NCBI RefSeq assembly: GCF_003610995.1 | Contig: NZ_CP032543.1 | Coordinates: 6,324,001 to 6,388,000 of the forward strand | Length of the DNA stretch: 64,000 nt | From: Streptomyces griseus subsp. griseus | GTDB lineage: Bacteria; Actinomycetota; Actinomycetes; Streptomycetales; Streptomycetaceae | Reading direction: 5' to 3' | In this document: in pieces, positions 14,419 through 26,874 of the stretch | Numbering within the stretch: the first letter of the stretch is position 1 | How the letters are laid out: each line of letters begins with the position of its first letter | Translations under genes and position numbers: made by a program | The notes under the pieces: generated by a model | Database searches by the model: none | Told to the model about the DNA's origin: nothing | The model's input: the letters and a program-made list of their open reading frames with translations, nothing else

Positions 14419-16287
14419 TCAGAGTTCCAGGTCGACGTCGAGACCGACGTTCTGACCGCGCAGCCAGAAGTCGAGGGCGAGGACCAGCTCGGTCCCGGTG
14501 CGGTAGCCGGGGCGCGGGTCGTCGGCGGTGGCGGCGGCGAGCGCGGTCTCGTCCAGCAGCTCGCGCACCGGCGCGTCCGGGCCCTCGGTCGCGCGCTTGA
14601 GGGAGGCCCGCAGCCCGTCGAGGTAGCGGTGGTCGCGGCTGGTCGGATACGGGGCCTTCACCCGGTCGGCGATCTCCGGCGGCAGCAGATCCCGGGTGGC
14701 GGCGCGCAGCAGGCTCTTCTCCCGGCCGTCGAACGACTTCATCGCCCAGGGGGTGTTGAAGACGTACTCCACCAGCCGGTGGTCGCAGAACGGCACCCGC
14801 ACCTCCAGGCCGACGGCCATGCTGGCCCGGTCCTTGCGGTCCAGCATCCAGGGCAGGAACCGGGTCAGATGGAGGTAGCCGATCTCGCGCATCCGCCGGT
14901 CGGCGGCGGACTCGCCGGCCAGCCGCGGAACTTCGGCGAGCGCCTCGTGGTAGCGCTGGGCCCGGTACCCCTGGAGGTCGATCTTGGTCAGCAGCGCGGG
15001 GTCGATCAGGGATTCGCCGGGGCCGCTGCCGGGCCCGGAGATGCCGGTGCCGAACGGCGGCGCCAGCCACGGGAAGGTGTCCGCGGTGAGGGTGTCGGGG
15101 TGGTTGAACCAGCGGTAGCCGCCGAAGACCTCGTCCGCCGCCTCGCCGGAGAGCGCGACCGTGCAGTGCCGGCGGACCTCCTGGAAGAGCAGGTAGAGCG
15201 AGGTGTCGCCGTCACCGAGGTCGAACGGCAGATCGCGGGCGCGCATGATGGCCTCGCGAGCGTCCTGGGCGAGCAGCTGCCCCGGGGAGAGGGTGACGAC
15301 CTGGTGGTCGGAGCCGGCGTGCCGGGCGAGCAGCTCGGCGAACGGCGCGTCGGGGGTGCCGCGCCAGTCGTCGGCCCGGAAGTCGTCGCCGTGCCGGTCG
15401 AAGTCGAGGGCGAAGGACCGGATCGGCGGGGCCCCGAGAGCGGTCCGGCGGCGGGCGGCCAGGGCGGTGATGATGGAGGAGTCCAGCCCGCCGGAGAGCA
15501 GCGTGCCCACCGGGACATCGGCCACCAGTTGCCGGGCGACGATGTCCTCCAGCAGCTCACGGACCCGGCCGACCGTGGTCTCCAGGTCATCGGTGTGCTC
15601 GTGGGACTCCACCGCCCAGTAGCGGCGCAGGGTGTTGCCGCCGCGCCCGACCTTGAGGGTGTGGCCGGGGCGCAGCTCGTACATGCCCTTGTAGACCGCG
15701 TGGCCGGGGGTCTTGGTGAAGCCGAGCAGCTCGGCGAAGCCCTCGGAGTCGATCGCGGGGCGCACCGAGGGGTGGGCCAGGATCGCCTTGGGCTCGGAGC
15801 CGAACAGCACCCCGCCACCGGGGAGCGGCCAGTAGTAGAGCGGCTTGATCCCCAACCGGTCGCGGACCAGGAGCAGTTCCTCGGTACGGGCGTCCCACAG
15901 CGCGAACGCGTACATGCCGTTGAGGTGTTCGGTGAAGTCCTCGCCCCACTCCAGATAGGCGTGCAGGACGACCTCGGTGTCGCTGTCGGTACGGAAGCCG
16001 TGTCCGCGGACCACCAACTGCTTGCGCAGCTCAAGGTAGTTGAAGACCTCGCCGGTGTAGCTGATGGCGACGACCGGCTCACCGCTCTGCTCGAAGACCA
16101 TCGGCTGGCTGCCGCCCGCCGGGTCGATGACGGAGAGCCGGCGGTGACCGAGGGCCACCGACCGGCCGAGCCAGAGACCGTGGGCGTCCGGCCCCCGGCA
16201 GGCCATGGTGGCGGTCATCGCGTCGGCCACCGGGGCGGTGACGGGGGCTGCCGGGTCGAAGGAGACCCATCCTGCTGTTCCACACAT
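14419..16287 (-). CDS. asnB: Asparagine synthase (glutamine-hydrolysing)-like amidotransferase
   Basis: A 622-residue class II glutamine amidotransferase. After Met, Cys2 (MCGTAGW) is the N-terminal nucleophile of the glutaminase domain. The synthetase domain carries the PP-loop SGGLDSS (about 264-272), which adenylates a carboxylate before ammonia transfer. Length and both domains are complete, so it should make an amide. It is the distal gene of the left arm of the biosynthetic locus (42 bp after the MFS gene), preceded by GAGAGG. Given the neighbours, it may amidate a pathway carboxylate rather than, or besides, aspartate; that is inference. Loss of Cys2 would have argued for a beta-lactam synthetase, and it is not lost. 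Confidence 0.9.
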   Translation of the reverse strand: MCGTAGWVSFDPAAPVTAPVADAMTATMACRGPDAHGLWLGRSVALGHRRLSVIDPAGGSQPMVFEQSGEPVVAISYTGEVFNYLELRKQLVVRGHGFRTDSDTEVVLHAYLEWGEDFTEHLNGMYAFALWDARTEELLLVRDRLGIKPLYYWPLPGGGVLFGSEPKAILAHPSVRPAIDSEGFAELLGFTKTPGHAVYKGMYELRPGHTLKVGRGGNTLRRYWAVESHEHTDDLETTVGRVRELLEDIVARQLVADVPVGTLLSGGLDSSIITALAARRRTALGAPPIRSFALDFDRHGDDFRADDWRGTPDAPFAELLARHAGSDHQVVTLSPGQLLAQDAREAIMRARDLPFDLGDGDTSLYLLFQEVRRHCTVALSGEAADEVFGGYRWFNHPDTLTADTFPWLAPPFGTGISGPGSGPGESLIDPALLTKIDLQGYRAQRYHEALAEVPRLAGESAADRRMREIGYLHLTRFLPWMLDRKDRASMAVGLEVRVPFCDHRLVEYVFNTPWAMKSFDGREKSLLRAATRDLLPPEIADRVKAPYPTSRDHRYLDGLRASLKRATEGPDAPVRELLDETALAAATADDPRPGYRTGTELVLALDFWLRGQNVGLDVDLEL

Positions 16288-16329
16288 GGTGATGTGGCCT
16301 CTCTCGGACGTGGACGTGATGGTGCGGGG

Positions 16330-17802
16330 TCAGACCCGGGCGGCGGACCGTCCGGCCGGCGGCGGGCTGAAGCGCTTGAACGTCCAGGTCGTCCACATCA
16401 CGACGAGGACGAGCAGGAAGCTCGCGGCGGTCGCCCAGGCCATCGCGAGGGACCAGTCGGCCGTGGCCGGCCGGTCGCCCGCCACGGTGAAGAACAGCGC
16501 GCCGATCGCCGCGACACCGGCGGCGCTCGCGAACTGCTGGGTGGTGGTGAGAATCCCGGAGGCGGTCCCGGCGTCCTGCGGCGGTACGTTGATGAGCGCC
16601 GCGCCGAACAGGGCGGGCAGCACGACACCGTTGCCCGCGCCGACCAGGCAGAGGCAGAACACCACCCACGGCAGGCCGACGGTGGAGTCCGAGAACGCCA
16701 ACGGCACGGCCAGCAGGGCCAGTCCGAGCGCGGTCACCCCGCCGGAGACCACCAGGGCGTTCATGCCCCAGCGTGCCGTGAGCCGCCCGCCGATCATGGA
16801 GGTGGCGGTGAACAGCACACCCATCGGCGAGAACATCAGTCCGGCCTCGAACGGGTCCAGCTTCAGCCCGGACTGGAGGAGCAGGGTCAGGGTGAACATG
16901 AAACTGCCGAAGTAGAGCATGAACGCCGCGCCCGCGATCACGCCGCCACGGAAGGAGTCGCTGCGGAACAGCGAGAGGACGAGCACCGGATTGCCGCCAC
17001 GGGCCGCCAGGGCCCGCTCCCAGAGCAGCGTCGCCACCATCACCGGAACGGCCAGCGCCATGCTGACCCAGGTCCAGGCCGGCCAGCCGGAGACATGGCC
17101 CATGGTCAGCGGCACCAGCAGCAGGGCGAGCGCGAACGAGACGCCGACCGCGCCGACCGGGTCGAGACCGGCCCGGATCCGGCTGATGTGCGCGGGGAGC
17201 ACCCGCAGCGCGGCGAACGCGATGACCAGGCAGAACGGCACGTTGATCAGGAAGATGGTGCGCCAGCCGAGCCCGGCGAAGTCCGCCGAGATCAGCGCAC
17301 CGCCGAGCACCTGGCCGGCGATGGACCCCAGCCCGGCGGCGGCGCCGTACCAGGCCATCGCCTTCCCCTTCTTCTCGTTGGGGAAGTACGCGGTGATGAC
17401 GGCCAGCACCGGCGGCACCATGACCGCCCCGGCAAGGCCCTGGGCCAGGCGGGCGGCGATCAACTGGCCCGGATTGACGGCCAGTCCGCACAGCAGCGAG
17501 GTGAACCCGAAGGCGAGCGTGCCGATGACGAACAGCCGGCGGTGCCCGTAACGGTCGCCCAGCCGACCGGCGGTGATCATCCCGCCCGCGTACGCGAACG
17601 CGTAACCCCCGACGATGAGTTCGAGCGCCGCCGGGTCGGCGTTGATGCTGCTCTCCAGGGAGGGAGCGGCCACGTTGACCACGAAGAAGTCGAACTGGGC
17701 GAAGAACATCGCCGACAGCAGGACGAGCAGCACCGGCCCGGTGCGCTGGAGGAGGGGAGGAGCCGCCGTCTCGGGCTCGTGCGGGTCGTGAAGCGTGGTC
17801 AT
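16330..17802 (-). CDS. MFS transporter (drug-efflux, 14-TM DHA2-like)
   Basis: A 490-residue major facilitator with 12-14 hydrophobic helices. The motif A-like loop GRLGDRYGHRRLF and motif C-like glycine/proline helix fit proton antiporters of the DHA2/EmrB type. ATG 17802 follows GAGGAG; an upstream extension in the same frame is Pro/Arg-rich and not credible. It is placed between the ligase/thioesterase pair and asnB in the left arm of the biosynthetic locus, where it would export the product and give self-resistance. Confidence 0.88.
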   Translation of the reverse strand: MTTLHDPHEPETAAPPLLQRTGPVLLVLLSAMFFAQFDFFVVNVAAPSLESSINADPAALELIVGGYAFAYAGGMITAGRLGDRYGHRRLFVIGTLAFGFTSLLCGLAVNPGQLIAARLAQGLAGAVMVPPVLAVITAYFPNEKKGKAMAWYGAAAGLGSIAGQVLGGALISADFAGLGWRTIFLINVPFCLVIAFAALRVLPAHISRIRAGLDPVGAVGVSFALALLLVPLTMGHVSGWPAWTWVSMALAVPVMVATLLWERALAARGGNPVLVLSLFRSDSFRGGVIAGAAFMLYFGSFMFTLTLLLQSGLKLDPFEAGLMFSPMGVLFTATSMIGGRLTARWGMNALVVSGGVTALGLALLAVPLAFSDSTVGLPWVVFCLCLVGAGNGVVLPALFGAALINVPPQDAGTASGILTTTQQFASAAGVAAIGALFFTVAGDRPATADWSLAMAWATAASFLLVLVVMWTTWTFKRFSPPPAGRSAARV

Positions 17803-17991
17803 GGCAGGCACTCCTCGGGGCCTGTGGCGGCCCGACGGCTGTGACGGACGGGGAGGGGGGCTTGTACGGGGGTGGAGCGGGGTTGTCGTACGTGGGTGGG
17901 TGAGGGAGCGGCGCGGGTGTGCGGGGCGTGTCGGGGGCGGCCGTGACGGGTGGCGGCGGGGCAGCCGCGCTTCCACCTCCGTGGCGGCGGG

Positions 17992-18444
17992 TCAGCCGCG
18001 CTTCCGCCTGCCGTGGATCGCGCAGGTGATCCGTGCGGTGCAGACCCGGCGGCCCGCCTCGTCCGTGATGACGACCTCGTAACTGGCCGACGTCACGCCC
18101 AGGTGCAGGGCCGTCGCCACGCCGGTCACGGTGCCCGAGCGCACCGGCAGGTGGTGGGTGGCGTTGATGTCCACCCCGACGGCGATACGGCCTTCGCCCG
18201 CGTGCAGCGCGGCGCCCAGTGAGCCCAGCGACTCGGCGAGGACGGCGGAGGCACCGCCGTGGAGCATCCGCTGCAACTGGGTGTTGCCGGTGACCGGCAT
18301 GGTCGCCACCACCCGCCGGGGGGCGGCCTCCAGGAAGGTCATCCCCATCCGGCCGGCCAGGGTGTCGGCACCGGCCTCGTTCACCCAGGCCGCTGCGGCT
18401 TCCGGGCCCGCCTCCGGGGTGGGCGGCGCGGCGAAGGTGGTCAT
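17992..18444 (-). CDS. Hotdog-fold thioesterase (PaaI family)
   Basis: A 150-residue single hotdog-domain protein. The PaaI pattern is visible: LGMTFLEAAPRRVVATMPVTGNTQ, then MLHGGASAVLAESLGS with the HGG and catalytic acidic residue, and GVDINATHHLPVRSG. Such enzymes cleave acyl-CoA or acyl-ACP thioesters. Its ATG overlaps the stop of the upstream adenylate-forming ligase (ATGA), so it is translationally coupled and is likely to release or edit the acyl chain in this pathway. Confidence 0.85.
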   Translation of the reverse strand: MTTFAAPPTPEAGPEAAAAWVNEAGADTLAGRMGMTFLEAAPRRVVATMPVTGNTQLQRMLHGGASAVLAESLGSLGAALHAGEGRIAVGVDINATHHLPVRSGTVTGVATALHLGVTSASYEVVITDEAGRRVCTARITCAIHGRRKRG

Positions 18445-20156
18445 GCCGGGACCGCCGTCGGGTCCTGGTCCACCGGCACCGCTACCGCCACTGCCTTCGG
18501 GTCGGCCGGTCGGTACGTCTCCAACGCGGCAAAGTTCTCGCGCAGTTGGCGCTTCAGTACCTTGCCGGTCGGGCCGAGCGGAATCGCGTCGGGAGTGGGC
18601 GCGATCTCCAGCAGGGCCAGTCGCGGCTGACCGGCCTGGTCGAGGGCGGCGTTGGCCCGCCGTAACAGGTCGTCAGCCGTGACGTCCTGACGTAGCGTCA
18701 CCACTGCTGCCGCCACGGTCCGGCCACGGTCCTGGGCGGCGACCACCGAGCAGTCCGCCAGCTCCTCGACGGCGAGCAGCAGCTCCTCCTCCATCAGCGC
18801 CGAGTAGCCGTCACCCGCCTCGGTCCTGATCCGGTCGACCGCCCGGTCCACGTGGAAGAACTCGCCGTCGGCGGAGCGGCGTACCAGGTCGCCGGAGAGC
18901 CAGTAGCCGGCGAGCATCGTGCGGTACGTGGTGTCGGAGTCGTTCCAGTAGCCGTGCGCGAGCGCCTCGCTGCGGACCCCTAGCAGGCCCACCTCGTCCG
19001 TCGCCGCCTCGGTGCCGTCCTCGCGCAGGACCGCGACCTCCGCGATCGGCACCCGGGTGCCAAGATGCCGGGCCCGGGACGGGCAGTCGGGGGTGAGTAC
19101 GCGGCGCAGCGCCGCCCAGCCCAGCTCGGAGGAGCCCAGGCCGTCGTCGATGACCGAGCCGGGGGTACGGGTGCCGTCGGGCGCGGTGGTGTGCCCGAGC
19201 CGCATCAGCCGGCGCATGTGCGCGTCGTGGCCGCAGTCGCCGAGGTTCACCCACACCGCGACGGAGTCGAAGTCCGCCGGTTCGGGGTCGTGCGTGGCCA
19301 GGTGCGACAGAGCCTCGTTGAAGGCCAGGACGACGTTCGGCCGGTGGGTGGCGCAGCCGCGTGCGATGCCGGGGCCGGTCGGGTCGGACCAGCCGACCGT
19401 GGGCACCCCGGCCAGCAGCGAGTAGAAGGTGAACGCGATGGCGCTGGAGTGCGACTGCGGGGCACCGGCGAGTACCAGGGAGCCCGGCTGCTCCGGGTGG
19501 TTGATCAGCCGGTAGCGGGCGCCGGCGACGCTCTGCCGGTGCGCCCAGACGACCGGCTTGGGGTTTCCGGTGGTGCCGGAGGAGTGGCAGATGACCACCG
19601 GGTCGTCGTCCCCGTGCCGGAACAGCTGGGAGGGCTTGGGGGCGCGGGCGCCCAGAGTGCCGACTTCCTCGTCCAGGGCGGTCCAGCGCAGCCCGGGAAG
19701 CGCGCGCTCACGCCCGGCGAGCAGGGTGAGCCGCTCCGTGTCGGTGAACAGGCCGGCCGAGCCGGTGCGTTCGACCAGGCCGAGGGCGAGTTCGGGGCGC
19801 ATCCGGCCGTTGATCAGTACGCCGATCGCGCCGATGCGGGCCAGCGCGGTCAGATGCACCTGGTACGCGAAGGTGTCCGCCAGGTAGACCGAGACCCGGT
19901 CGCGCGGCCCCACGCCCCGGTCCAGGTACCAGGCCGACCAGGAGTCCGCCAGGGCGTCCAGCTCGCGCAGGCTGAACTCCGTTCGCGGGGTGCCGTCCAG
20001 GCCGGCCAGCGGCTGCTCGGCGAGGAGTACGGGCAGGTCGGCCGCGGGGTTCGTCTCCACGGCGATCCGCCAGGCGTTGCCACCGCCGAGACCGGGGAGC
20101 TCCGCGAGCCGGAGACGTGCTTCGGGGGACAGCAGCGTGGTGGAGGTGAGCGGCAT
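18441..20156 (-). CDS. Class I adenylate-forming enzyme (acyl-CoA/ACP ligase)
   Basis: A 571-residue ANL-superfamily ligase. Motifs run in order: CHSSGTTGNPKPV (P-loop), GLGSSELGW (A5-like), GYWLSGDLVRR (A7), DRAVDRIRTEAGD (A8) and the C-terminal catalytic lysine PLGPTGKVLKRQL (A10). It activates a carboxylic acid as acyl-AMP and transfers it to CoA or an ACP. The start ATG 20156 follows CCAGGGGA. It is the first gene of the left arm and faces the right arm across 418 bp. It is the second of two ligases in the locus, so two different acids may be activated. Confidence 0.88.
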   Translation of the reverse strand: MPLTSTTLLSPEARLRLAELPGLGGGNAWRIAVETNPAADLPVLLAEQPLAGLDGTPRTEFSLRELDALADSWSAWYLDRGVGPRDRVSVYLADTFAYQVHLTALARIGAIGVLINGRMRPELALGLVERTGSAGLFTDTERLTLLAGRERALPGLRWTALDEEVGTLGARAPKPSQLFRHGDDDPVVICHSSGTTGNPKPVVWAHRQSVAGARYRLINHPEQPGSLVLAGAPQSHSSAIAFTFYSLLAGVPTVGWSDPTGPGIARGCATHRPNVVLAFNEALSHLATHDPEPADFDSVAVWVNLGDCGHDAHMRRLMRLGHTTAPDGTRTPGSVIDDGLGSSELGWAALRRVLTPDCPSRARHLGTRVPIAEVAVLREDGTEAATDEVGLLGVRSEALAHGYWNDSDTTYRTMLAGYWLSGDLVRRSADGEFFHVDRAVDRIRTEAGDGYSALMEEELLLAVEELADCSVVAAQDRGRTVAAAVVTLRQDVTADDLLRRANAALDQAGQPRLALLEIAPTPDAIPLGPTGKVLKRQLRENFAALETYRPADPKAVAVAVPVDQDPTAVPA

Positions 20157-20574
20157 CGATTCCCCTGGCCTCGGTCGGACGAGCTCTCTGGACGGATCGC
20201 GGGACCCCGCCGTGCGACGCGGGTCGGCCGACGCACGCACCGAGGATCCGGGACTCCGGAGCGCCGGTCGGTCGCGGCAGCGCGTGCAGAAGTTATAGGG
20301 GGCCTCTGCGTCGTCGCCATCGCCCGCCGAGAATGCGTCAGGTCGGTTGCCGCGCCGGGGTTTCGTGCCGGGAATGCCGCGTTATGCCGTGTCGTGCGGT
20401 CCAGTCGGGGTCGGCCGAAAGGTATCTGTGCGCGGCTGAAACGGACTTGACGAACTTGGTGTCGGGGCGCTGACGGGCCGAGGCCCGCCCGGCTACGTTC
20501 CTGCCGAATTCCTCCGGAGCCGACCGGAAGCCGTGGCTGCCGGCCGTCGTGCAGCCCGACAAGGAGCGCGTCGC
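20157..20574. promoter_or_regulatory. Divergent control region of the biosynthetic locus
   Basis: These 418 bases hold no gene. Toward the right arm, CTGACG (20470-20475) and TACGTT (20494-20499) are spaced 18 bases and would start transcription near 20506; AAGGAG at 20561 serves the GTG at 20575. Toward the left arm, TATAAC on the minus strand (20297-20292) is a good -10 but has no clear -35. A second TTGACG lies at 20447. I see no obvious long operator palindrome. No regulator gene is present in the locus, so control must come from elsewhere. Confidence 0.5.
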
Positions 20575-22872
20575 GTGTCGCCTGAACGGATATCCGATGC
20601 CGTGGAGCGGCTGCGCCACATCGTGGCATCCGTCCTTGAGCTGGACCTCGCGGAGGTGGGGGCCGAGGCGTCCTTCCACCGTGATCTGAAGATGGACTCG
20701 CTGGAGAAGGTCGAGTTCGCGGCCCGGGTCGAGTGGGCCTTCGGCGTCGCGCTGAGCGACGAGGAGGCGAGCGCCATCGACAGCGCGCTCGCCGCCGCCG
20801 TTTTGCTGGACGCCCGGTCCTCGCTGCGGGCAGGGGCAGGGGCGGGTGTGGGGGTGGGGGCCGCGGCTTCGGGTCCGGCCCTGGCCTCGGCTCCGGGGGG
20901 TGCCCGCTCTGCTGCCGGCCCGCCTGCGCCGCCCCCTTCCGGGCCGTCCTCGCCGACGCCGCTTCTCCCCGCCCCGGCCCAGCGCCCAGCCGCGTCGTCG
21001 CCCGCCGGGCTGCGGTCTGAGCCGTCCCCGGCTGCCTCATCCTCGCCCGCGCTGTCCCCGCGCGCCTCGTCGTCGCCTGTCCCGGCCCAGCGTTCCGCCG
21101 AGCCTGTGCCCGCCGGGCTGCGGCTCGGTTCCGCCGAGCCTGCGCCCGCCGGGCTGCGGCTCGGTTCCGCCGAGCCTGTGCCCGCCGGGCTGCGGCTCGC
21201 GCCGGTCCCGCCTGTCCCACCCTCGCCCGCGCCGCCCCTGCCTGGACTGTCCTCCCCGCAGGCCGCCCGCCCGGCCACCGCACCCGCCCCCACGGGCAGC
21301 GCCCTGACCACGGGCAGCGCCCTGACCACGGGCGGCGGCCGGACTACCGGCATCGACCCCTCCACCGCCATCGACCTGGTGGAGCGGCTGACCGGCCGCC
21401 ACCTCGCCGTCGGACGTGGGGACCGTACCGCCTACCTCGACCCCGACCTCGGCGCCGTCTCCTACCGGGCCCTGCACGAAGCCGCTCGCGGCTACGCCGG
21501 GGCCCTGCGCGCCCACGGCGTCGCCCCCGGCGCCCGCGCGCTCGTCGTCGCCGAGGACTCCGCTGCCACCGTCGCCGCCGTCCTCGGCCTCTGGTGGCAC
21601 GGCTGCGTGCCCGTCCCGGTCAGCCCCATGCTCGGCGAGGCCGGCCTCGCCCTCGTCGCCACCGACTGCGCGGCCGAGGTCATCCACCTCGACACCGCGC
21701 CCGCCGAGCCGCCCGCCGGGACCGTGCTGCTCACGGGAGACGCCGTACGCACCGGTATCCGCATCGGCCACCCCAACGCGGCGAACCGCCCCGACCTCGC
21801 CCGGCCCTCCACCGGCCACCTCCCCGGCCGGACCGCCCTGATCCAGTACACCTCCGGCAGCACCGGCCGGCCCAAGGGTGTCCGGCACGCCACCTCCGCG
21901 ATCACCGCCATGCTGGACGGCTTCGGCGGCCTGCTCGCCCTGCGCGCCGACGACACCGTGCTCTCCACCGCCCGGATGTCCTTCGGCTACGGCTTCGGCA
22001 GCTCCGTCCTCTGCGCCCTCGACGCCGGGGCCACCACCGCACTGATCCGCGGTGCCGTCGACCCGCACACCGTCCGGGCCGCGCTGCGCCGCCACCGCCC
22101 CACCGTGCTCTGCTCCGTACCCCGCCTCTACGCGGCCCTGCTGGACACCCTCCGGCCCGGGGACGACGCGGTGGCCGCGCTGCGCCTGTGCCTCACCGCC
22201 GGTGAGAACTGCCCGGCCGACCTCAACCGCCGTATCCAGGACGTCTTCGGCGCCCCCGTGATGAACTGCCTCGGCGCCACCGAGGTCATGCACGTGGTCG
22301 TCGCCACCCCGCCGGACCGCCCGATGCCCGGACGGGCCGGACTGGCCGTCCCCGGCGCCACCGCCACCGTCCGCGACGAGCACGGCCGCCACGTGCCCGA
22401 CGGCACCGAAGGCCGTCTGCACATCGCCGGACCGACCGTCGCACTCGGCTACCTCGACCGCCCCGACGCCGACCGGATCACCTTCGCCGACGGCGGTGCC
22501 TACACCGGCGACCTGGTCCGCCGTGAGGCCGACGGCACCCTGACCCATCTCTGCCGGGCCGACGACCTCCTCAACCTCGGCGGCTACAAGGTGCCGCCCG
22601 CCGAGATCGAGGCGGTGCTCCGTACCGTCGCCGGCATCCGCGACTGCGCCGTCGTCGGCGGCCTCGACGCCGACGGCCTGGAGTGCGCCGTCGCCTTCGT
22701 CGTTCCGGAGACCGGGGCCGACGAGGAAACGATTCGCCGCGCCCTCCGGGCAGCGGTCCGCGCCGGCCTCGCCCTCTACAAGCGCCCGGCCCGGGTCGAG
22801 TTCGTCAGCACACTGCCCGCCACGGCCACCGGCAAGGTGGCCGCCTACAGATTGCGTGAGCAGGCATCATGA
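20575..22872 (+). CDS. ACP / acyl-AMP ligase fusion protein
   Basis: A 765-residue fusion. Residues 1-80 are an acyl carrier domain with the 4'-phosphopantetheine site in KMDSLEK (Ser42). Residues about 81-258 are a Pro/Ala-rich, low-complexity linker with 36-bp repeats. Residues about 260-765 are an AMP-forming ligase: TSGSTGRPKG (about 426-435), GATEV (about 567), YTGDLVRRE, LNLGGYKVPPAEIE and the terminal ATGKVAAYRLRE with the catalytic Lys. It could load an acid onto its own ACP as a starter unit. GTG 20575 follows AAGGAGCG. Its stop overlaps the ketosynthase ATG. An ACP fused ahead of a ligase by so long a linker is unusual. Confidence 0.85.
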   Translation: MSPERISDAVERLRHIVASVLELDLAEVGAEASFHRDLKMDSLEKVEFAARVEWAFGVALSDEEASAIDSALAAAVLLDARSSLRAGAGAGVGVGAAASGPALASAPGGARSAAGPPAPPPSGPSSPTPLLPAPAQRPAASSPAGLRSEPSPAASSSPALSPRASSSPVPAQRSAEPVPAGLRLGSAEPAPAGLRLGSAEPVPAGLRLAPVPPVPPSPAPPLPGLSSPQAARPATAPAPTGSALTTGSALTTGGGRTTGIDPSTAIDLVERLTGRHLAVGRGDRTAYLDPDLGAVSYRALHEAARGYAGALRAHGVAPGARALVVAEDSAATVAAVLGLWWHGCVPVPVSPMLGEAGLALVATDCAAEVIHLDTAPAEPPAGTVLLTGDAVRTGIRIGHPNAANRPDLARPSTGHLPGRTALIQYTSGSTGRPKGVRHATSAITAMLDGFGGLLALRADDTVLSTARMSFGYGFGSSVLCALDAGATTALIRGAVDPHTVRAALRRHRPTVLCSVPRLYAALLDTLRPGDDAVAALRLCLTAGENCPADLNRRIQDVFGAPVMNCLGATEVMHVVVATPPDRPMPGRAGLAVPGATATVRDEHGRHVPDGTEGRLHIAGPTVALGYLDRPDADRITFADGGAYTGDLVRREADGTLTHLCRADDLLNLGGYKVPPAEIEAVLRTVAGIRDCAVVGGLDADGLECAVAFVVPETGADEETIRRALRAAVRAGLALYKRPARVEFVSTLPATATGKVAAYRLREQAS
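21092..21199 (+). repeat. Three 36-bp tandem units in the ACP-ligase linker
   Basis: Units start at 21092, 21128 and 21164 and are nearly identical (a T/C difference in the second). Each encodes a 12-residue GSAEPxPAGLRL-like segment. An 18-bp unit encoding GSALTT is also duplicated near 21298-21333. These suggest a flexible tether whose length can change in frame. Confidence 0.9.
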
Positions 22873-24005
22873 CGTGGGACATCACAGGGATGGGAGCGGT
22901 GGCCTGCAACGGCACCACCCCGTCGGAGGTCTTCGACGCGCTCTGCGCGGGCCGCGACGGCCGGGGGCCGCTCCAGGTCTTCGACCACGACAAGTACCGT
23001 GCCCGGAACGCCTACGAGATCACCGACCGGGCCCGCCCGGGCGTCGACGAACCCGGCCGCGCCACCCGCTGGCTCATCACCGCGATCGACCAGGCCCTCG
23101 CCGACGCGGGCCACCCGCGCGATCTCGCCGATGTGCCGATCCTGGTCGGCACCACCCTCCAGGAGCAGCGCAGCGCCGAACTCTGGTGGCGCCACGGCAC
23201 CGCCCTCGACCCCGCCGACCTGCACTTCGGCACCGCGCTGCGGGAACAGTACGGCGCCGCCCGCACCTACACCTTCGCCAACGCCTGCGCCGCCAGCCTC
23301 TACGCCCTCGCCATGGCCACCGACCTCATCGAACTCGGCGAGGCCGACACCGTCGTGGTGGCGGGCACCGACGCCATCGGCGAGAGCGCCTTCGGCACCC
23401 TGGACCGGGTCCAGAACGACGTGCCCGACGCGCTGCGCCCCTTCGACCGCTCCCACCGCGGCATGTTGATGGGCGAGGGCGCCGTCGCCGTGGTGCTCAC
23501 CCGCGCCGCCGCCCCCGGCCGCCGGGTCCACGCCCGGCTGCGCGGCGTCGGCGTCAACTGCGACGCCCGGCACTCCACCGCCCCCGACCCGGAGGGCATC
23601 ACCCGCGTCCTGCGCGACGCCTACCGGCTGGCCGGGGCCGCACCCGAGGAGATCGACCTCGTCATGCTGCACGGCAGTGGCACCCCGAAGAACGACTCCA
23701 CCGAGGCCGCCGTGCTCTCCCGGATCTTCCCTCCCGGGAGCGGTCCGCTGATGACCGCTGTCAAGTCGATGACCGGCCACACCCTCGGCGGCTCCGGCCT
23801 GCTCAGCCTGGCGATGGCCGTGCTCGCCCTTCAGCGGGGCCAGGTGCCGCCCGTGCTCGGTCTCACCGACCCGATCGAGGAGGCGGACGGACTGCGTCTC
23901 GTACGCGAAAAGGCCGCCTCCGCACCAGAAATGACGCTTGCTCAGGTCGACGCGTTCGGCTTCGGCGGGATCAACGCCGCCGCGATCCTGGAGGCAGCCC
24001 GATGA
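22869..24005 (+). CDS. Beta-ketoacyl synthase (catalytically complete)
   Basis: A 378-residue KAS of the thiolase fold. The Cys-His-His set is visible: Cys140 in FANACAASLYAL, His268 in MLHGSGT, His304 in KSMTGHTLGG with Lys299. It should carry out decarboxylative Claisen condensation of an acyl starter with malonyl-ACP. At 378 residues it is shorter than FabF (about 410). It overlaps both neighbours by 4 bases (ATGA), so the ligase, ketosynthase and ketosynthase-like genes are tightly coupled. It is probably the alpha subunit of a heterodimer with the next protein. Confidence 0.9.
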   Translation: MTWDITGMGAVACNGTTPSEVFDALCAGRDGRGPLQVFDHDKYRARNAYEITDRARPGVDEPGRATRWLITAIDQALADAGHPRDLADVPILVGTTLQEQRSAELWWRHGTALDPADLHFGTALREQYGAARTYTFANACAASLYALAMATDLIELGEADTVVVAGTDAIGESAFGTLDRVQNDVPDALRPFDRSHRGMLMGEGAVAVVLTRAAAPGRRVHARLRGVGVNCDARHSTAPDPEGITRVLRDAYRLAGAAPEEIDLVMLHGSGTPKNDSTEAAVLSRIFPPGSGPLMTAVKSMTGHTLGGSGLLSLAMAVLALQRGQVPPVLGLTDPIEEADGLRLVREKAASAPEMTLAQVDAFGFGGINAAAILEAAR

Positions 24006-24958
24006 GCGCAGCGCATCCCGCCTCCGCGTCGCCGCCCCGAGCGGCCGTCGTCACCGGGGTGGGGCTCGCCGTCCCCGGCCTCACCCTGCCCGACGAACTC
24101 CTCGGCACCGTCCGCGACGGCGGCTTCGACCCCGTCACCGGACTCGTCGGCCGCGACCTGCGGCACAAGGACCGCGCCTCCCGCCTCGCCCTGCGCGCCG
24201 CCGCCCCCGCCTTGAGGGACGCCGGTCTGCTCACCGGTGACGGCTACACCGGCGCCGGTGACTCCACCGCCGTCCTCGTCAGCACCAACGTCGGCATCCT
24301 GGAGAACGTCTGCGGCTTCGCCGACACCATCGCCCGCGACACCGTCCTCGGCCTCAGTCCGCTCGGGCTGCCGCAGACCTCCAGCAACGTCATCGCCGGC
24401 TCGGTCGCCATGGCCCACGGACTGCGCGGCCCCAACGTGACCCTGTGCAACGGCCCCACCAGTGGCCTCGACGCCCTTTACTGGGCCCGCGCCCTGATCG
24501 TCACCGGACGCGCCGACACCGCCGTCGTGATCGGCGTGGAGCCGGGCGGCGACATCGTCACCAAGCTGCTCGGCACCCCGGCGCTGGACGGTGCCGTTGC
24601 CCTGGTCCTGGAGTCGGCCGCCCGCGCCGCCGAACGAGGCGCCAAGATCCGTGCCGTCGTGGCCGGTTGTGCCCGCGCGGCGGACCTGGCCGGCGCCGTG
24701 GCCCGTGCCGGAGGCCTGGCGCCCGACCTGTGGCTGACCGAGGCGGCGGACGAACCGGCCGGGCCGCGCGCCGCCTCCGTCCTTGATCCCGCCGCCGGAC
24801 TCGGCGCCACCTCCGGCGCCCTCGGCCTGCTCCAGGCCGCCGCCGCCATCGCCCACCTCGACGAACACGGCAGGCACACCGTCCTCGCCACCTGCGGCGG
24901 GCCCGAGGACGACGGTGTCGCCGCCGCGTTCCTCACGGGCCCGCACCACACCCCCTGA
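24002..24958 (+). CDS. Shortened ketosynthase-like protein, probable chain-length-factor-type partner
   Basis: A 318-residue thiolase-fold protein aligned with the preceding ketosynthase but lacking its chemistry. The active-site segment reads LCNGPTSGLDAL: by alignment on LxAL, Pro152 occupies the catalytic Cys position, and a Cys149 lies three residues earlier. Neither catalytic His motif is recognisable and the C-terminal half is reduced. This is what would be expected of a chain-length factor or structural KS-beta subunit, but it has no Gln decarboxylase residue. It overlaps the ketosynthase stop (ATGA). A GGAG site lies before the next gene. Confidence 0.75.
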   Translation: MSAAHPASASPPRAAVVTGVGLAVPGLTLPDELLGTVRDGGFDPVTGLVGRDLRHKDRASRLALRAAAPALRDAGLLTGDGYTGAGDSTAVLVSTNVGILENVCGFADTIARDTVLGLSPLGLPQTSSNVIAGSVAMAHGLRGPNVTLCNGPTSGLDALYWARALIVTGRADTAVVIGVEPGGDIVTKLLGTPALDGAVALVLESAARAAERGAKIRAVVAGCARAADLAGAVARAGGLAPDLWLTEAADEPAGPRAASVLDPAAGLGATSGALGLLQAAAAIAHLDEHGRHTVLATCGGPEDDGVAAAFLTGPHHTP

Positions 24959-24989
24959 GTACCCGACCACCGAGCAAGAGGAGTGCCCC

Positions 24990-25259
24990 ATGCCCGCCCA
25001 CACCGACCAGGCCTTCGACGCCGAGGAGTTGCGCACCGTCGTCGCGCAGGCGCTGGAACTGCCCGTCGACGAGGTCACCGACGACGCCCGTTTCAAGGAG
25101 GACCTGGAGGTCGACTCGCTGATCTCGCTGGAGATCGCCGTCCGGGTCGAGGAGCGCTACGGCGTGAAGATCGACGAGTCGCGGCTGGCCGAGATCGGCA
25201 GCTTCCGGCTGGTACGGGAGCTGATCGAGGCCGAGCTGAACGGCGCGTCCGCCACATGA
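24990..25259 (+). CDS. Acyl carrier protein
   Basis: An 89-residue discrete ACP with the phosphopantetheine serine in [13 protein letters not shown] (Ser43), acidic helix II and typical four-helix length. It follows the KS-like gene by 31 bases with a strong AGAGGAG site and overlaps the ketoreductase start (ATGA). It should carry the growing chain for the KS pair. This is the second carrier domain in the locus, distinct from the one fused to the ligase. Confidence 0.93.
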
Positions 25260-26110
25260 GCGGCCCCGAAGCGGAAGCCCTCACCGGCCCCGAAGCCGAC
25301 ACCGGCTCCGAGGCCCACAGCGGCACCGGCACAGCCACCGAAGCCATCACCACCCCCGAACCCACCCAGCGCTCCCCCCGCCCGGTGGCCCTGGTCACCG
25401 GTGGCTCCCGAGGCATCGGACGTGCCGTCGTCGCCCGCCTCGCCGAGGACGGTTACGACATCGCCTTCTGCTACCGCTCCGACGCGGAGGCCGCCCGGCA
25501 AGCGGCCCTGATCGCCGAGAAGGCCGGGGCCCGGGTCCTCCACCGGCCGGTCGACGTCGCCGATGCCGCGCAGGTCAAGGAGTTCGTCGCCGCGGCCGAG
25601 GCCGAACTCGGCCCGCTGGCGGCCGTCGTCACCTCGGCCGGTATCACCCGGGACCGGCCGCTCGCCCTGATGGCGGAGGAGGAGTGGCGCTCGGTCATCG
25701 GCACCAACCTCGACGGCACCTACAACGTCTGCCGGGCCGCCGTCTACCCGCTGATGCGCCGCCGCCGGGGAGCCGTCGTCACGCTCTCCTCCATCGCCGG
25801 GGTGCACGGCAGCGCGGGCCAGACCAACTACGCGGCCTCCAAGGCCGGGATCATCGGCTTCACCCGCTCCCTGGCCCGGGAGTGCGGGCGCTACGGCATC
25901 CGCGCCAACGTCGTCGCGCCCGGCCTGATCTCCACCGACATGACGGCCGGCCTGCCGGCCGAGGTCGCCGAACGCCACCTCAGGAGCATCCCGCTCGGCC
26001 GGGCCGGCACCCCGCAGGAGGTCGCCGACCTGGTCTCCTTCCTGGTCTCGGACCGCGCCGCCTACATCACCGGCCAGGTCGTCGAGATCAACGGCGGCCT
26101 GCCGAGCTGA
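25256..26110 (+). CDS. 3-oxoacyl-ACP reductase (FabG-like SDR)
   Basis: A 284-residue short-chain reductase. After a 40-residue Gly/Thr/Glu-rich extension absent from FabG, the fold begins with [12 protein letters not shown] (48-55 for TGGSRGIG). TSAG at about 126-129 and the Ser179, Tyr192, Lys196 set are intact, with terminal [12 protein letters not shown]. It would reduce the beta-keto group on the ACP. It is the last gene of the right arm. No dehydratase or enoylreductase follows, so the product may keep a beta-hydroxyl, unless primary-metabolism enzymes act in trans. Confidence 0.9.
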
Positions 26111-26127: not shown

Positions 26128-26874
26128 TCAGCTCCCCGCCCGGTGGGAGGCGGGGGGCGCCGCCGGCTCCGGCGTCTGTGCCGCACGCGTCACATCGCCG
26201 ACGACCTCCACCACATCGGGGCCGTACGCCTGGGAGTTGACCACCTTCAGCAGCAGCGCGAACGACTTGTTGCCGTGCTTGCGCAGCAGCTTCTCGTGGT
26301 GGCGCGACACGTAACGGGTCGCCGCCTGGTTGGTGATGGCCCGCTGTCCGCAGAACAGGAAGACCGGGCGCGCGTCCTGACCACCTGTCAGCCTGGCGAG
26401 CAGAACGTACTCCGCGATGCCCGGCTCCAGCCGGTAGCGCTCCGAGCCGATCTGGAAGGCGACCTGGTCCGGGCCGGGGTCCGGGTCGGTGTTGATCCTC
26501 ACACCGGGGAGCAGGGTCCGCAGGTGGGCCGCCATCCGCTGGTTGGACGTCGGTCCGCCGACACAGAACTCCGTGCGCTCCCCGAAGCCCTGCTGTGCCA
26601 CGTCGTGCGTGACGATCTGCGCGTTGCCCGCGCAGTCCTTGATCAGCGCGGAGAGCTCCAGCAGCGCGAACACGTCGTACCGGTGCACGGACCCCTCGGC
26701 TCCCGCGTACCGGTTGACGACGAGCAGGCACTCGGAGTGGGACGGCAGGCCGAAGAACGCCTGCTTACGGCGGAGCTTGCGCCGCAGGAGGTAGGTACGG
26801 GCCAGCCAGCCCAGCGTTCCGCTGACCCCGGCGGCTATCACGCCCAGCACGATGTTGCGCACGTCGTCCGTCAT
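26128..26874 (-). CDS. Unknown membrane-anchored protein
   Basis: I do not recognise a named family. The 248-residue product has one N-terminal transmembrane helix (about 8-28) followed by a basic stretch (LLRRKLRRKQ), predicting a cytoplasmic C-terminal domain. That domain contains an ECLLVVNRYAG strand, a FCVGGPTSNQRMAAHL segment, PVFLFCGQRAI and a terminal YGPDVVEVVGDVT. The alternating strands and GGP/CGQ turns hint at a Rossmann-like fold. It is convergent with the ketoreductase (17 bp apart) and divergent from ggt, and probably does not belong to the biosynthetic locus. Confidence 0.6.
   Translation of the reverse strand: MTDDVRNIVLGVIAAGVSGTLGWLARTYLLRRKLRRKQAFFGLPSHSECLLVVNRYAGAEGSVHRYDVFALLELSALIKDCAGNAQIVTHDVAQQGFGERTEFCVGGPTSNQRMAAHLRTLLPGVRINTDPDPGPDQVAFQIGSERYRLEPGIAEYVLLARLTGGQDARPVFLFCGQRAITNQAATRYVSRHHEKLLRKHGNKSFALLLKVVNSQAYGPDVVEVVGDVTRAAQTPEPAAPPASHRAGS

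What the first reader, a model, noticed from the sequence alone, without database searches (positions are those of the whole stretch)
14419..26110. Uncharacterised divergent biosynthetic locus with two ligases, two carriers, a KS pair and an amidotransferase
Two divergent arms, each with stop-start overlaps, combine an adenylate-forming ligase, thioesterase, exporter and AsnB-type amidotransferase with ACP-ligase fusion, KS, KS-like partner, ACP and ketoreductase. There is no acyltransferase, dehydratase or enoylreductase, so the expected product is a short beta-hydroxy- or beta-keto-acyl chain started from an unusual acid and possibly amidated. I do not recognise a characterised cluster with this set.
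Basis: partly seen in the sequence, partly recalled or inferred. Interest (0 to 1): 0.85.

Follow-up and report, generated by a model that had tools for sequence, protein, structure and literature searches.

The report
Diazo-forming aromatic polyketide gene cluster
Nine neighbouring genes in a Streptomyces genome look like a small-molecule factory that lengthens an amino-aromatic acid by two carbons and then makes a nitrogen-nitrogen bond on it, a rare chemistry whose product here is still unknown.

Summary
The gene set is real and its two arms are inherited together: all nine genes recur in 9 of 12 other strains, eight in the other 3. The reading must change. The left-arm "ligase" (18441-20240) groups with aryl-amine diazotases of the AvaA6 type, though below the AvaA6 equivalog cut-off. 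The "unusual acid" is probably 3-hydroxyanthranilate: PhzE-PhzD-DhbA-type genes lie beside the cluster in 5 of 12 relatives; in the window's genome they lie 2.8 Mb away, next to a nitrosuccinate lyase, a nitrite source. Most likely pathway: 3-hydroxyanthranilate is loaded by the carrier-fused benzoate-type ligase, extended once, reduced, released, diazotised with nitrite, usually amidated, exported. It resembles ava/cma clusters but lacks 3,4-AHBA synthase genes and has a distant KS; it differs from penzonemycin by having a PKS. Boldest reading not excluded: intramolecular azo coupling closes a cinnoline ring.

The parts
14419..16287 (-). AsnB-like glutamine amidotransferase (N-terminal Cys2 and SGGLDSS motif kept); likely carboxyl to carboxamide; not found beside the cluster in 2 of 13 strains
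   Evidence: Pfam Asn_synthase/GATase_7, TIGR01536 483 bits over cut-off 267, conserved residues in the 10 relatives that have it, presence table
16330..17976 (-). MFS exporter (DHA2/EmrB-like)
   Evidence: Pfam MFS_1, best NCBIfam TIGR00711 below cut-off
17992..18444 (-). hotdog thioesterase, EntH/MenI-like; likely releases the carrier-bound product
   Evidence: Pfam 4HBT, TIGR00369 over cut-off, EntH model 100 bits (below its cut-off)
18441..20240 (-). ANL1: adenylate-forming enzyme of the aryl-amine diazotase clade; probable start codon 20156
   Evidence: best NCBIfam NF058622 AvaA6 diazotase 339 bits (cut-off 975), next family 146 bits; tree clade 100/99 with 3 AvaA6 equivalogs; closest solved structure 9XB8, 529 bits
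20157..20574 (.). divergent intergenic region, presumed two-way promoter
   Evidence: start codons; no promoter test done
20533..22872 (+). carrier protein (residues 25-79) - Pro/Ala-rich linker - ANL2 benzoate-type ligase (293-768); probable start 20575; starter loading
   Evidence: Pfam PP-binding, AMP-binding, AMP-binding_C; best NCBIfam TIGR02262 302 bits, below cut-off 375; PDB benzoate-CoA and anthranilate-CoA ligases
22869..24005 (+). ketosynthase with Cys (NACAA), His (HGSGT), His (GHTLGG) kept in the relatives
   Evidence: the NACAA Cys in 12 of 12 relatives; best solved relative 6KXD
24002..24958 (+). chain-length-factor-like KS partner, shortened, active Cys replaced (P here; P, A or E in the relatives)
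   Evidence: Pfam ketoacyl-synt N only; no Cys at that column in 12 of 12 relatives; wider family
24990..25259 (+). free acyl carrier protein (probable malonyl carrier)
   Evidence: Pfam PP-binding; start seen
25256..26110 (+). FabG-like ketoreductase
   Evidence: Pfam adh_short_C2; TIGR01830 291.5 bits, just below cut-off 297.75

Best explanation
The locus is a small biosynthetic cluster that builds an (often amidated) aryl-C2 metabolite and makes an N-N bond on it. SHOWN: gene content, co-inheritance, kept catalytic residues, ANL1 inside the diazotase clade, 3-hydroxyanthranilate (3-HAA) type genes beside the cluster in 5 of 12 relatives or elsewhere in the genome, nitrosuccinate lyase in 11 of 13 genomes. 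INFERRED: (1) PhzE/PhzD/DhbA-type enzymes supply 3-HAA; (2) ANL2 adenylates 3-HAA and loads the fused carrier; (3) KS/CLF adds one malonyl unit from the free carrier; (4) the FabG-like enzyme reduces the beta-keto group; (5) the EntH-like thioesterase releases the acid; (6) ANL1 activates nitrite with ATP and diazotises the aryl amine (at which stage is unknown); (7) the AsnB-like enzyme makes the carboxamide; (8) the MFS protein exports it. In the window's genome step 1 and the nitrite supply would come from a second locus 2.8 Mb away. The fate of the diazo group (kept, ring-closed or lost) is not decided.
For: ANL1: best family AvaA6 diazotase 339 bits against 146 for the next; a 36-row tree puts it in a 26-row clade with 3 AvaA6 equivalogs (over cut-off), support 100/99, apart from the 10 other ANL rows. 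The sister group of 7 sits beside an aminodeoxychorismate-synthase-type gene in 7 of 7 loci (gene family, read; a 74% relative named by HMM), i.e. another aryl-amine route, with a nitrosuccinate lyase within about 22 kb in 5 of 7 genomes. Starter: PhzE+PhzD+DhbA-type genes beside the cluster in 5 of 12 relatives (the PhzE of L067 runs off the fetched stretch), in Saccharothrix contiguous on the same strand as AsnB and the PKS arm. In the other 8 of 13 strains (window included) a PhzD of 300 bits or more lies elsewhere in the genome in 8 of 8 and nitrosuccinate lyase is over its cut-off in 8 of 8; the two lie within 25 kb of each other in 6 of 8 (on different contigs in the other 2). Own genome: PhzE-like, PhzD, DhbA-like (343 bits, cut-off 300) and lyase (753 bits, cut-off 650) within one 20-kb stretch. 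Background: PhzD of 300 bits or more in 65 of 295 Streptomyces genomes, lyase over cut-off in 81 of 295; cluster carriers within that sample 6 of 6 and 5 of 6 (hypergeometric 9.5e-5 and 0.0067). ANL2 resembles benzoate- and anthranilate-CoA ligases. 3-HAA has OH ortho to NH2; most known diazotase substrates have OH ortho or para (review PMC11705231).
Against: ANL1 is far below the AvaA6 equivalog cut-off (339 against 975), so its substrate, or even its reaction, may differ. The window's own cluster holds neither 3-HAA nor nitrite genes, and its second locus carries an ANL enzyme of its own and may serve another product; G022 has 3-HAA genes at both places. 2 of 13 genomes (G191, Saccharothrix) have no lyase over the cut-off, and L060's genome is only just over it (655 of 650). 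The 300-bit PhzD line was drawn after seeing the list; at E 1e-60 140 of 295 genomes have a match, which makes the PhzD enrichment much weaker. The counts ignore relatedness among strains. PhzD-like isochorismatases also serve 2,3-dihydroxybenzoate; the PhzE-like partner argues against that but was assigned by TrpE/PabB-type models below their cut-offs. No activity or product is known.
Confidence: 0.6

Rival explanations
1. Diazo group retained: the product is an o-quinone diazide (cremeomycin-like) carrying a beta-hydroxypropionamide side chain, or it couples to another molecule (hydrazone) by Japp-Klingemann chemistry as proposed for tasikamides and penzonemycins.
For: 3-HAA is an o-aminophenol, and an ortho or para OH stabilises the diazo form; no gene family beyond the core recurs in all the clusters (gene families, which come from a simple gene caller).
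Against: A beta-ketoacyl group ortho to the diazonium would be expected to react within the molecule (general chemistry).
Confidence: 0.25
2. Diazotisation-dependent deamination as in ava/cma: ANL1 only removes the amino group and the product is a meta-hydroxyphenyl C3 acid or amide.
For: The nearest characterised enzymes, AvaA6 and CmaA6, work in such pathways (PMC10777205).
Against: No extra reductase family recurs across the clusters that could stand for AvaA7; I had no labelled AvaA7 sequence, so this was not tested directly.
Confidence: 0.15
3. ANL1 is an ordinary acyl-activating enzyme; the cluster makes an amidated beta-hydroxy acid or a quinolone-type lactam from 3-HAA, or, joins two acids.
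For: ANL1 scores below the diazotase equivalog cut-off; a 2-aminobenzoyl-acetyl intermediate easily closes to a quinolone (general chemistry).
Against: Diazotase clade with 100/99 support; nitrosuccinate lyase over cut-off in 11 of 13 genomes against 81 of 295 in the genus sample.
Confidence: 0.12
4. The starter is anthranilate or another amino- or hydroxybenzoate, and the 3-HAA genes beside the cluster in relatives belong to separate pathways.
For: 8 of 13 strains, the window included, show no 3-HAA genes beside the cluster (in L062 the contig ends next to the carrier gene, so absence is unsure there); sister KS/CLF/ANL2 sets without PhzE or PhzD exist (6 of 7 examined).
Against: The set is adjacent in 5 of 12 relatives and in L060 and L061 flanks both ends of the core; a related ANL2/KS/CLF cluster in G272 (L105) also has PhzE and a DAHP synthase, though no PhzD in the 20 kb fetched.
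Confidence: 0.2

Closest known systems
ava (avenalumic acid) and cma (p-coumaric acid) clusters
   Same: aryl-amine starter acid loaded on a carrier, two carriers, KS/CLF, FabG-like reductase (ava), ATP-dependent diazotase-clade enzyme, MFS exporter (table); no own DH (in cma proposed to come from fatty acid synthesis)
   Different: no AvaH/AvaI-like 3,4-AHBA synthase genes in the window or the fetched stretches of 12 relatives; KS only 32-36% identical over part of an ava-type KS; adds an EntH-like thioesterase and an AsnB-like enzyme; starter route is of PhzE/PhzD/DhbA type; no nitrosuccinate lyase beside the cluster in the fetched stretches of the 12 relatives
pzm (penzonemycin) cluster
   Same: DAHP synthase, PhzE-like, isochorismatase and DhbA-like genes for 3-HAA plus CreD/CreE and an AMP-binding CreM homologue; Rrf2 regulator (table passages), as in L042 and L067
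   Different: the words ketosynthase and asparagine do not occur in that paper's main text and the table passages list no PKS genes. The window genome's second locus, not the window cluster, is the pzm-like one
cispentacin amc cluster (AmcF/AmcG)
   Same: KS with a reduced partner; one C2 extension shown for AmcF-AmcG; AmcF is the top NCBIfam match of the KS (190 bits)
   Different: below both cut-offs (190 of 325; partner 25 of 80); starter there is 2-oxoglutarate
PDB 9XB8/9XBS 'Fatty-acid-CoA ligase FadD'
   Same: closest solved structure to ANL1 (529 bits)
   Different: it belongs to the sister group with PabAB/PapC-type genes (1170 bits to the L119 protein); entry title and paper were not visible to me

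Membership tests
AvaA6-type ATP-dependent aryl-amine diazotase | NCBIfam NF058622 equivalog score | tested here: not met
   339 bits, cut-off 975
AvaA6-type ATP-dependent aryl-amine diazotase | same clade as equivalog members, apart from acyl ligases | tested here: met
   26-row clade, 100/99; midpoint root, several long outgroup branches
AvaA6-type ATP-dependent aryl-amine diazotase | adenylation motifs kept (SSGTTGNPK, GSSELG, TGKVLKR) | tested here: met
   columns largely invariant or nearly so in 10 sequences; motif roles recalled
AvaA6-type ATP-dependent aryl-amine diazotase | nitrite source in the genome | tested here: met
   nitrosuccinate lyase over cut-off in the own genome and in 11 of 13 strains; CreE not verified
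AvaA6-type ATP-dependent aryl-amine diazotase | nitrite- and ATP-dependent diazotisation | not testable with these tools
   needs an enzyme assay
ava/cma cluster family (AvaH/I + KS-CLF + AvaA6, search rule of PMC10777205) | 3,4-AHBA synthase genes | tested here: not met
   no match in the window or the fetched stretches of 12 relatives with the pair from L052; whole genomes not searched
ava/cma cluster family (AvaH/I + KS-CLF + AvaA6, search rule of PMC10777205) | KS orthologous to AvaA4 | tested here: not met
   32-36% over part of the protein, 73-106 bits, against the KS of L052, an ava-type locus
type II PKS (KS-CLF pair with free carrier) | active KS plus partner without active Cys, carrier, KR | tested here: met
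   KS closest to 6KXD
3-HAA pathway (PhzE, PhzD, DhbA type) | all three enzymes linked to the cluster | tested here: inconclusive
   adjacent in 5 of 12 relatives, at a second locus in the window's genome
amc (cispentacin) KS/CYF | AmcF and AmcG cut-offs | tested here: not met
   190 of 325 and 25 of 80 bits

The most novel reading that the evidence does not exclude
The cluster is a cinnoline factory. ANL1 diazotises the carrier-bound or released 3-(2-amino-3-hydroxyphenyl)-3-oxopropionyl unit, whose active methylene attacks the ortho diazonium within the molecule (Borsche / Japp-Klingemann type), closing a 1,2-diazine ring. The FabG-like enzyme then reduces C4, water loss aromatises the ring, and AsnB gives 8-hydroxycinnoline-3-carboxamide; without reduction the 4-oxo-cinnoline-3-carboxylate core of the synthetic drug cinoxacin would result (structure recalled). 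This would be an enzymatic route from diazotisation to a fused N-N heteroaromatic. A cinnoline carboxamide and carboxylic acid have been reported from Streptomyces strain KRA17-580, with no gene cluster found in my searches; they are described as the 4-carboxy isomers, which this route would not give directly.
Probability: 0.25. Interest if true: 0.85.

Novelty: new variant of a known kind. Interest (0 to 1): 0.62.

Why it matters
Enzymatic N-N bond formation is rare and sought after, and the ava/cma diazotase clusters start from 3,4-AHBA. A diazotase placed next to an ortho-amino beta-ketoacyl unit would test whether nature closes cinnoline rings by azo coupling. The locus also suggests a 'split' pathway in which starter and nitrite are supplied from a distant locus in some strains and partly from genes beside the cluster in others, so mining for nitrite genes cluster by cluster would miss it. 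It gives a concrete test set of 13 strains.

Tried and rejected
Rejected: (a) the sister KS/CLF/ANL2 sets (partner score 257 bits or more; 11 of 295 genomes without a close ANL1) as the same cluster: of 7 examined none has ANL1, and L103 has an ACP-thioesterase fusion and other unrelated neighbours. (b) Cispentacin membership: below cut-offs. (c) The window's flanks as part of the cluster: S15 peptidase, L,D-transpeptidase, an unassigned gene (26128-26874) and gamma-glutamyltranspeptidase; of the 31 loci compared these four matched only L058. (d) 2,3-dihydroxybenzoate as starter: the PhzE-like protein fits TrpE/PabB-type synthases better than the isochorismate synthase model, but this is not conclusive. 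(e) A first table showed ANL2 of L058 at 23% coverage; one search showed this to be a BLAST composition artefact (79% identity over 1-779).

Dropped or partial: of the 46 genomes with an ANL1 match at E 1e-40, 20 neighbourhoods were fetched. Branches L050 and L054-L057 of the clade were not worked out. PhzD and lyase counts in the 295-genome sample include the 6 cluster carriers; the PhzD count was made by hand from the ranked list. Papers: PMC10777205 first of four parts and passages; PMC10698177 outline and two sections; PMC11705231 section 4.2 and passages; PMC9323291, PMC8838263, PMC6631947, PMC11280510 passages only. No published cluster with this set was found in searches, of which I saw listings; subscription journals and MIBiG were not searchable. 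9XB8, 8ZTZ, 9BQ0 titles could not be read.
Full report
WHAT IS THERE. Gene calls by third-position GC and ORF lists with Pfam and NCBIfam confirm a divergent nine-gene locus, 14419-26110. Minus strand, outward from the centre: ANL1 (18441-20240), hotdog thioesterase, MFS exporter, AsnB-like amidotransferase. Plus strand: carrier-linker-ANL2 fusion, KS, KS-like partner, carrier, FabG-like reductase. ATGA overlaps join ANL1/TE, ANL2/KS, KS/partner and carrier/KR. The KS keeps Cys, His, His (the Cys in 12 of 12 relatives). The partner has no Cys at that column in the window or any of 12 relatives (P, A or E instead). The AsnB-like protein keeps Cys2 and SGGLDSS in the 10 relatives that have it.

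CO-INHERITANCE. In 295 sampled Streptomyces genomes, ANL1 at 55% identity or more occurs in 6, and all six carry the PKS arm. One scan of genome contigs gave 11 loci, of which 10 carry the cluster and one (L068, a gammaproteobacterial MAG) only an ANL1 relative. All nine genes are present in 9 of the 12 relatives; AsnB is missing from the fetched stretches of G191 and G022, and KR in L062 where the contig ends. The four window flank genes tested match only S. microflavus L058; some relatives share flanks among themselves. The two arms are one unit.

ANL1 IS A DIAZOTASE-CLADE ENZYME. Its best NCBIfam match is the AvaA6 diazotase at 339 bits against 146 for the next family, but far under the equivalog cut-off of 975. 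A 36-protein tree places it with support 100/99 in a clade of 26 that holds three true AvaA6 equivalogs (L051-L053, over cut-off), apart from the ten other ANL rows; the own genome's ANLb, on a long branch, is the next neighbour outside. L051-L053 carry 3,4-AHBA-synthase-type genes and L052 a nitrosuccinate lyase. The group sister to the cluster's ANL1 (L043-L049) sits beside a PabAB-type synthase in 7 of 7 loci and within about 22 kb of a nitrosuccinate lyase in 5 of 7 genomes (positions). Three further genomes of another family (L119-L121) carry the same PabAB/PapC set, and in L119 also a chorismate-mutase-like protein, a DAHP synthase and a NasC-like nitrate reductase (738 bits, cut-off 1100); PDB 9XB8 is very close to that enzyme. 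Thus the branches that were worked out accompany routes to aryl amines; L050 and L054-L057 were not worked out.

STARTER ACID. ANL2 is closest to benzoate- and anthranilate-CoA ligases. In relatives the cluster carries extra genes: PhzE-like synthase, PhzD-like isochorismatase and a DhbA-like dehydrogenase (over the TIGR04316 cut-off in L038 and L042), plus a class II DAHP synthase in L041 and, by the same gene family, L042. This is the set proposed for 3-HAA in penzonemycin (PMC9323291 passages). The three genes are adjacent in 5 of 12 relatives (L060, L061, L067, G191, G022; PhzE in L067 runs off the fetched stretch). In Saccharothrix (L067) they lie, in coordinate order, PhzE-PhzD-DhbA-AsnB-KR-ACP-CLF-KS-ANL2, all on one strand. 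The window's genome has them at 3.55 Mb (L087), with nitrosuccinate lyase about 3 kb from PhzD, a quinone reductase, an SRPBCC protein and another ANL enzyme. A PhzD of 300 bits or more occurs in 13 of 13 cluster strains and in 65 of 295 of the sample; at the looser E 1e-60 it is 140 of 295, and the 300-bit line was drawn after seeing the list. Lyase is over cut-off in 11 of 13 (one, G674, only just) against 81 of 295. Strains without adjacent 3-HAA genes (8, with L062 unsure because its contig ends) all have both elsewhere, within 25 kb of each other in 6. CreE was not verified in the own genome. These counts ignore shared ancestry; within the sample the cluster carriers number only 6.

PKS MODULE. 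The KS is closest among solved structures to 6KXD, a KS-CLF complex cited as typical in the cispentacin paper. The partner belongs to a wider family (555 proteins at E 1e-10 or better among the 8000 candidates scored). In the Streptomyces sample 17 of 295 genomes have it at 257 bits or more, 6 with the cluster's ANL1 and 11 without; of those 11, 7 were examined, all with ANL2 and KS, none with ANL1, one (L105) with PhzE and DAHP synthase but no PhzD in the 20 kb fetched. Like cma, the cluster has no dehydratase of its own; in cma it is proposed to come from fatty acid synthesis. One KS/CLF pair and no DH/ER fit a single extension, as shown for AmcF-AmcG, but the number of extensions is inferred.

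MECHANISM AND FATE OF N-N. Most probable: 3-HAA loading, one C2 extension, reduction, release, diazotisation with nitrite, amidation, export. The order of diazotisation is open. Three fates are compatible: retained diazo-quinone or intermolecular coupling, ring closure, or loss of N2. Ring closure is attractive because the diazonium would be ortho to a beta-ketoacyl chain with an active methylene, giving a cinnoline-3-carboxyl skeleton (general chemistry); coupling of enzymatic diazo compounds to beta-keto units is the reported or proposed route in tasikamides and penzonemycins. The reductase is awkward for this reading unless it acts after coupling. A cinnoline-4-carboxamide and the acid were reported from Streptomyces KRA17-580 (reviews), the acid/amide pair recalling an AsnB step, but position 4 does not fit directly and no genome was seen. 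A 2019 review states that no natural cinnoline was known until 2011.

CLASS. It works like an ava/cma-type diazotising type II PKS cluster but fails two defining tests of that family (3,4-AHBA synthase, orthologous KS). It is best called a new variant: a diazotase-clade enzyme, a 3-HAA-type starter and a one-step PKS, usually with an amidotransferase.

Noticed in passing
G000 3543000-3562999 (L087), outside the window: A pzm/cre-like second locus with PhzE-like, PhzD, DhbA-like, nitrosuccinate lyase, quinone reductase, SRPBCC protein and its own ANL enzyme (ANLb, branching just outside the diazotase clade).
   Followed up: partly
L043-L049, L119-L121: Sister diazotase-clade clusters with PabAB/PapC-type genes (p-aminophenylpyruvate-like route); in L046 a mycothiol-dependent nitroreductase-like protein, ATP-grasp and NRPS genes, in L119 a NasC-like nitrate reductase; PDB 9XB8 is very close to the L119 enzyme.
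   Followed up: partly
L117:12519-13328 (G022): A FabI/InhA-like enoyl-ACP reductase (404 bits, cut-off 299) next to PhzE beside the cluster, possibly a spare target for self-resistance; seen in one strain only.
   Followed up: no
L105 (G272): A larger cluster with DAHP synthase, PhzE-like gene, related ANL2, several KS genes, KR, carrier and a luciferase-like oxygenase.
   Followed up: partly
L102-L104, L106, L107: KS/CLF/ANL2 sets without ANL1; in L103 with an ACP-thioesterase fusion, a uracil-DNA-glycosylase-like and a phosphotransferase gene.
   Followed up: partly
L040:15185-15850 and its family in L039, L062, L063, L064: A 221-aa protein without Pfam match close after AsnB in three strains, possible extra tailoring enzyme.
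   Followed up: partly
L042:14504-14959, L067:12170-12625: Rrf2-family regulators inside two relatives of the cluster; the pzm cluster also has one.
   Followed up: partly
L068: A gammaproteobacterial MAG contig encodes a 44% identical ANL1 relative without the PKS arm; transfer or binning error not examined.
   Followed up: no
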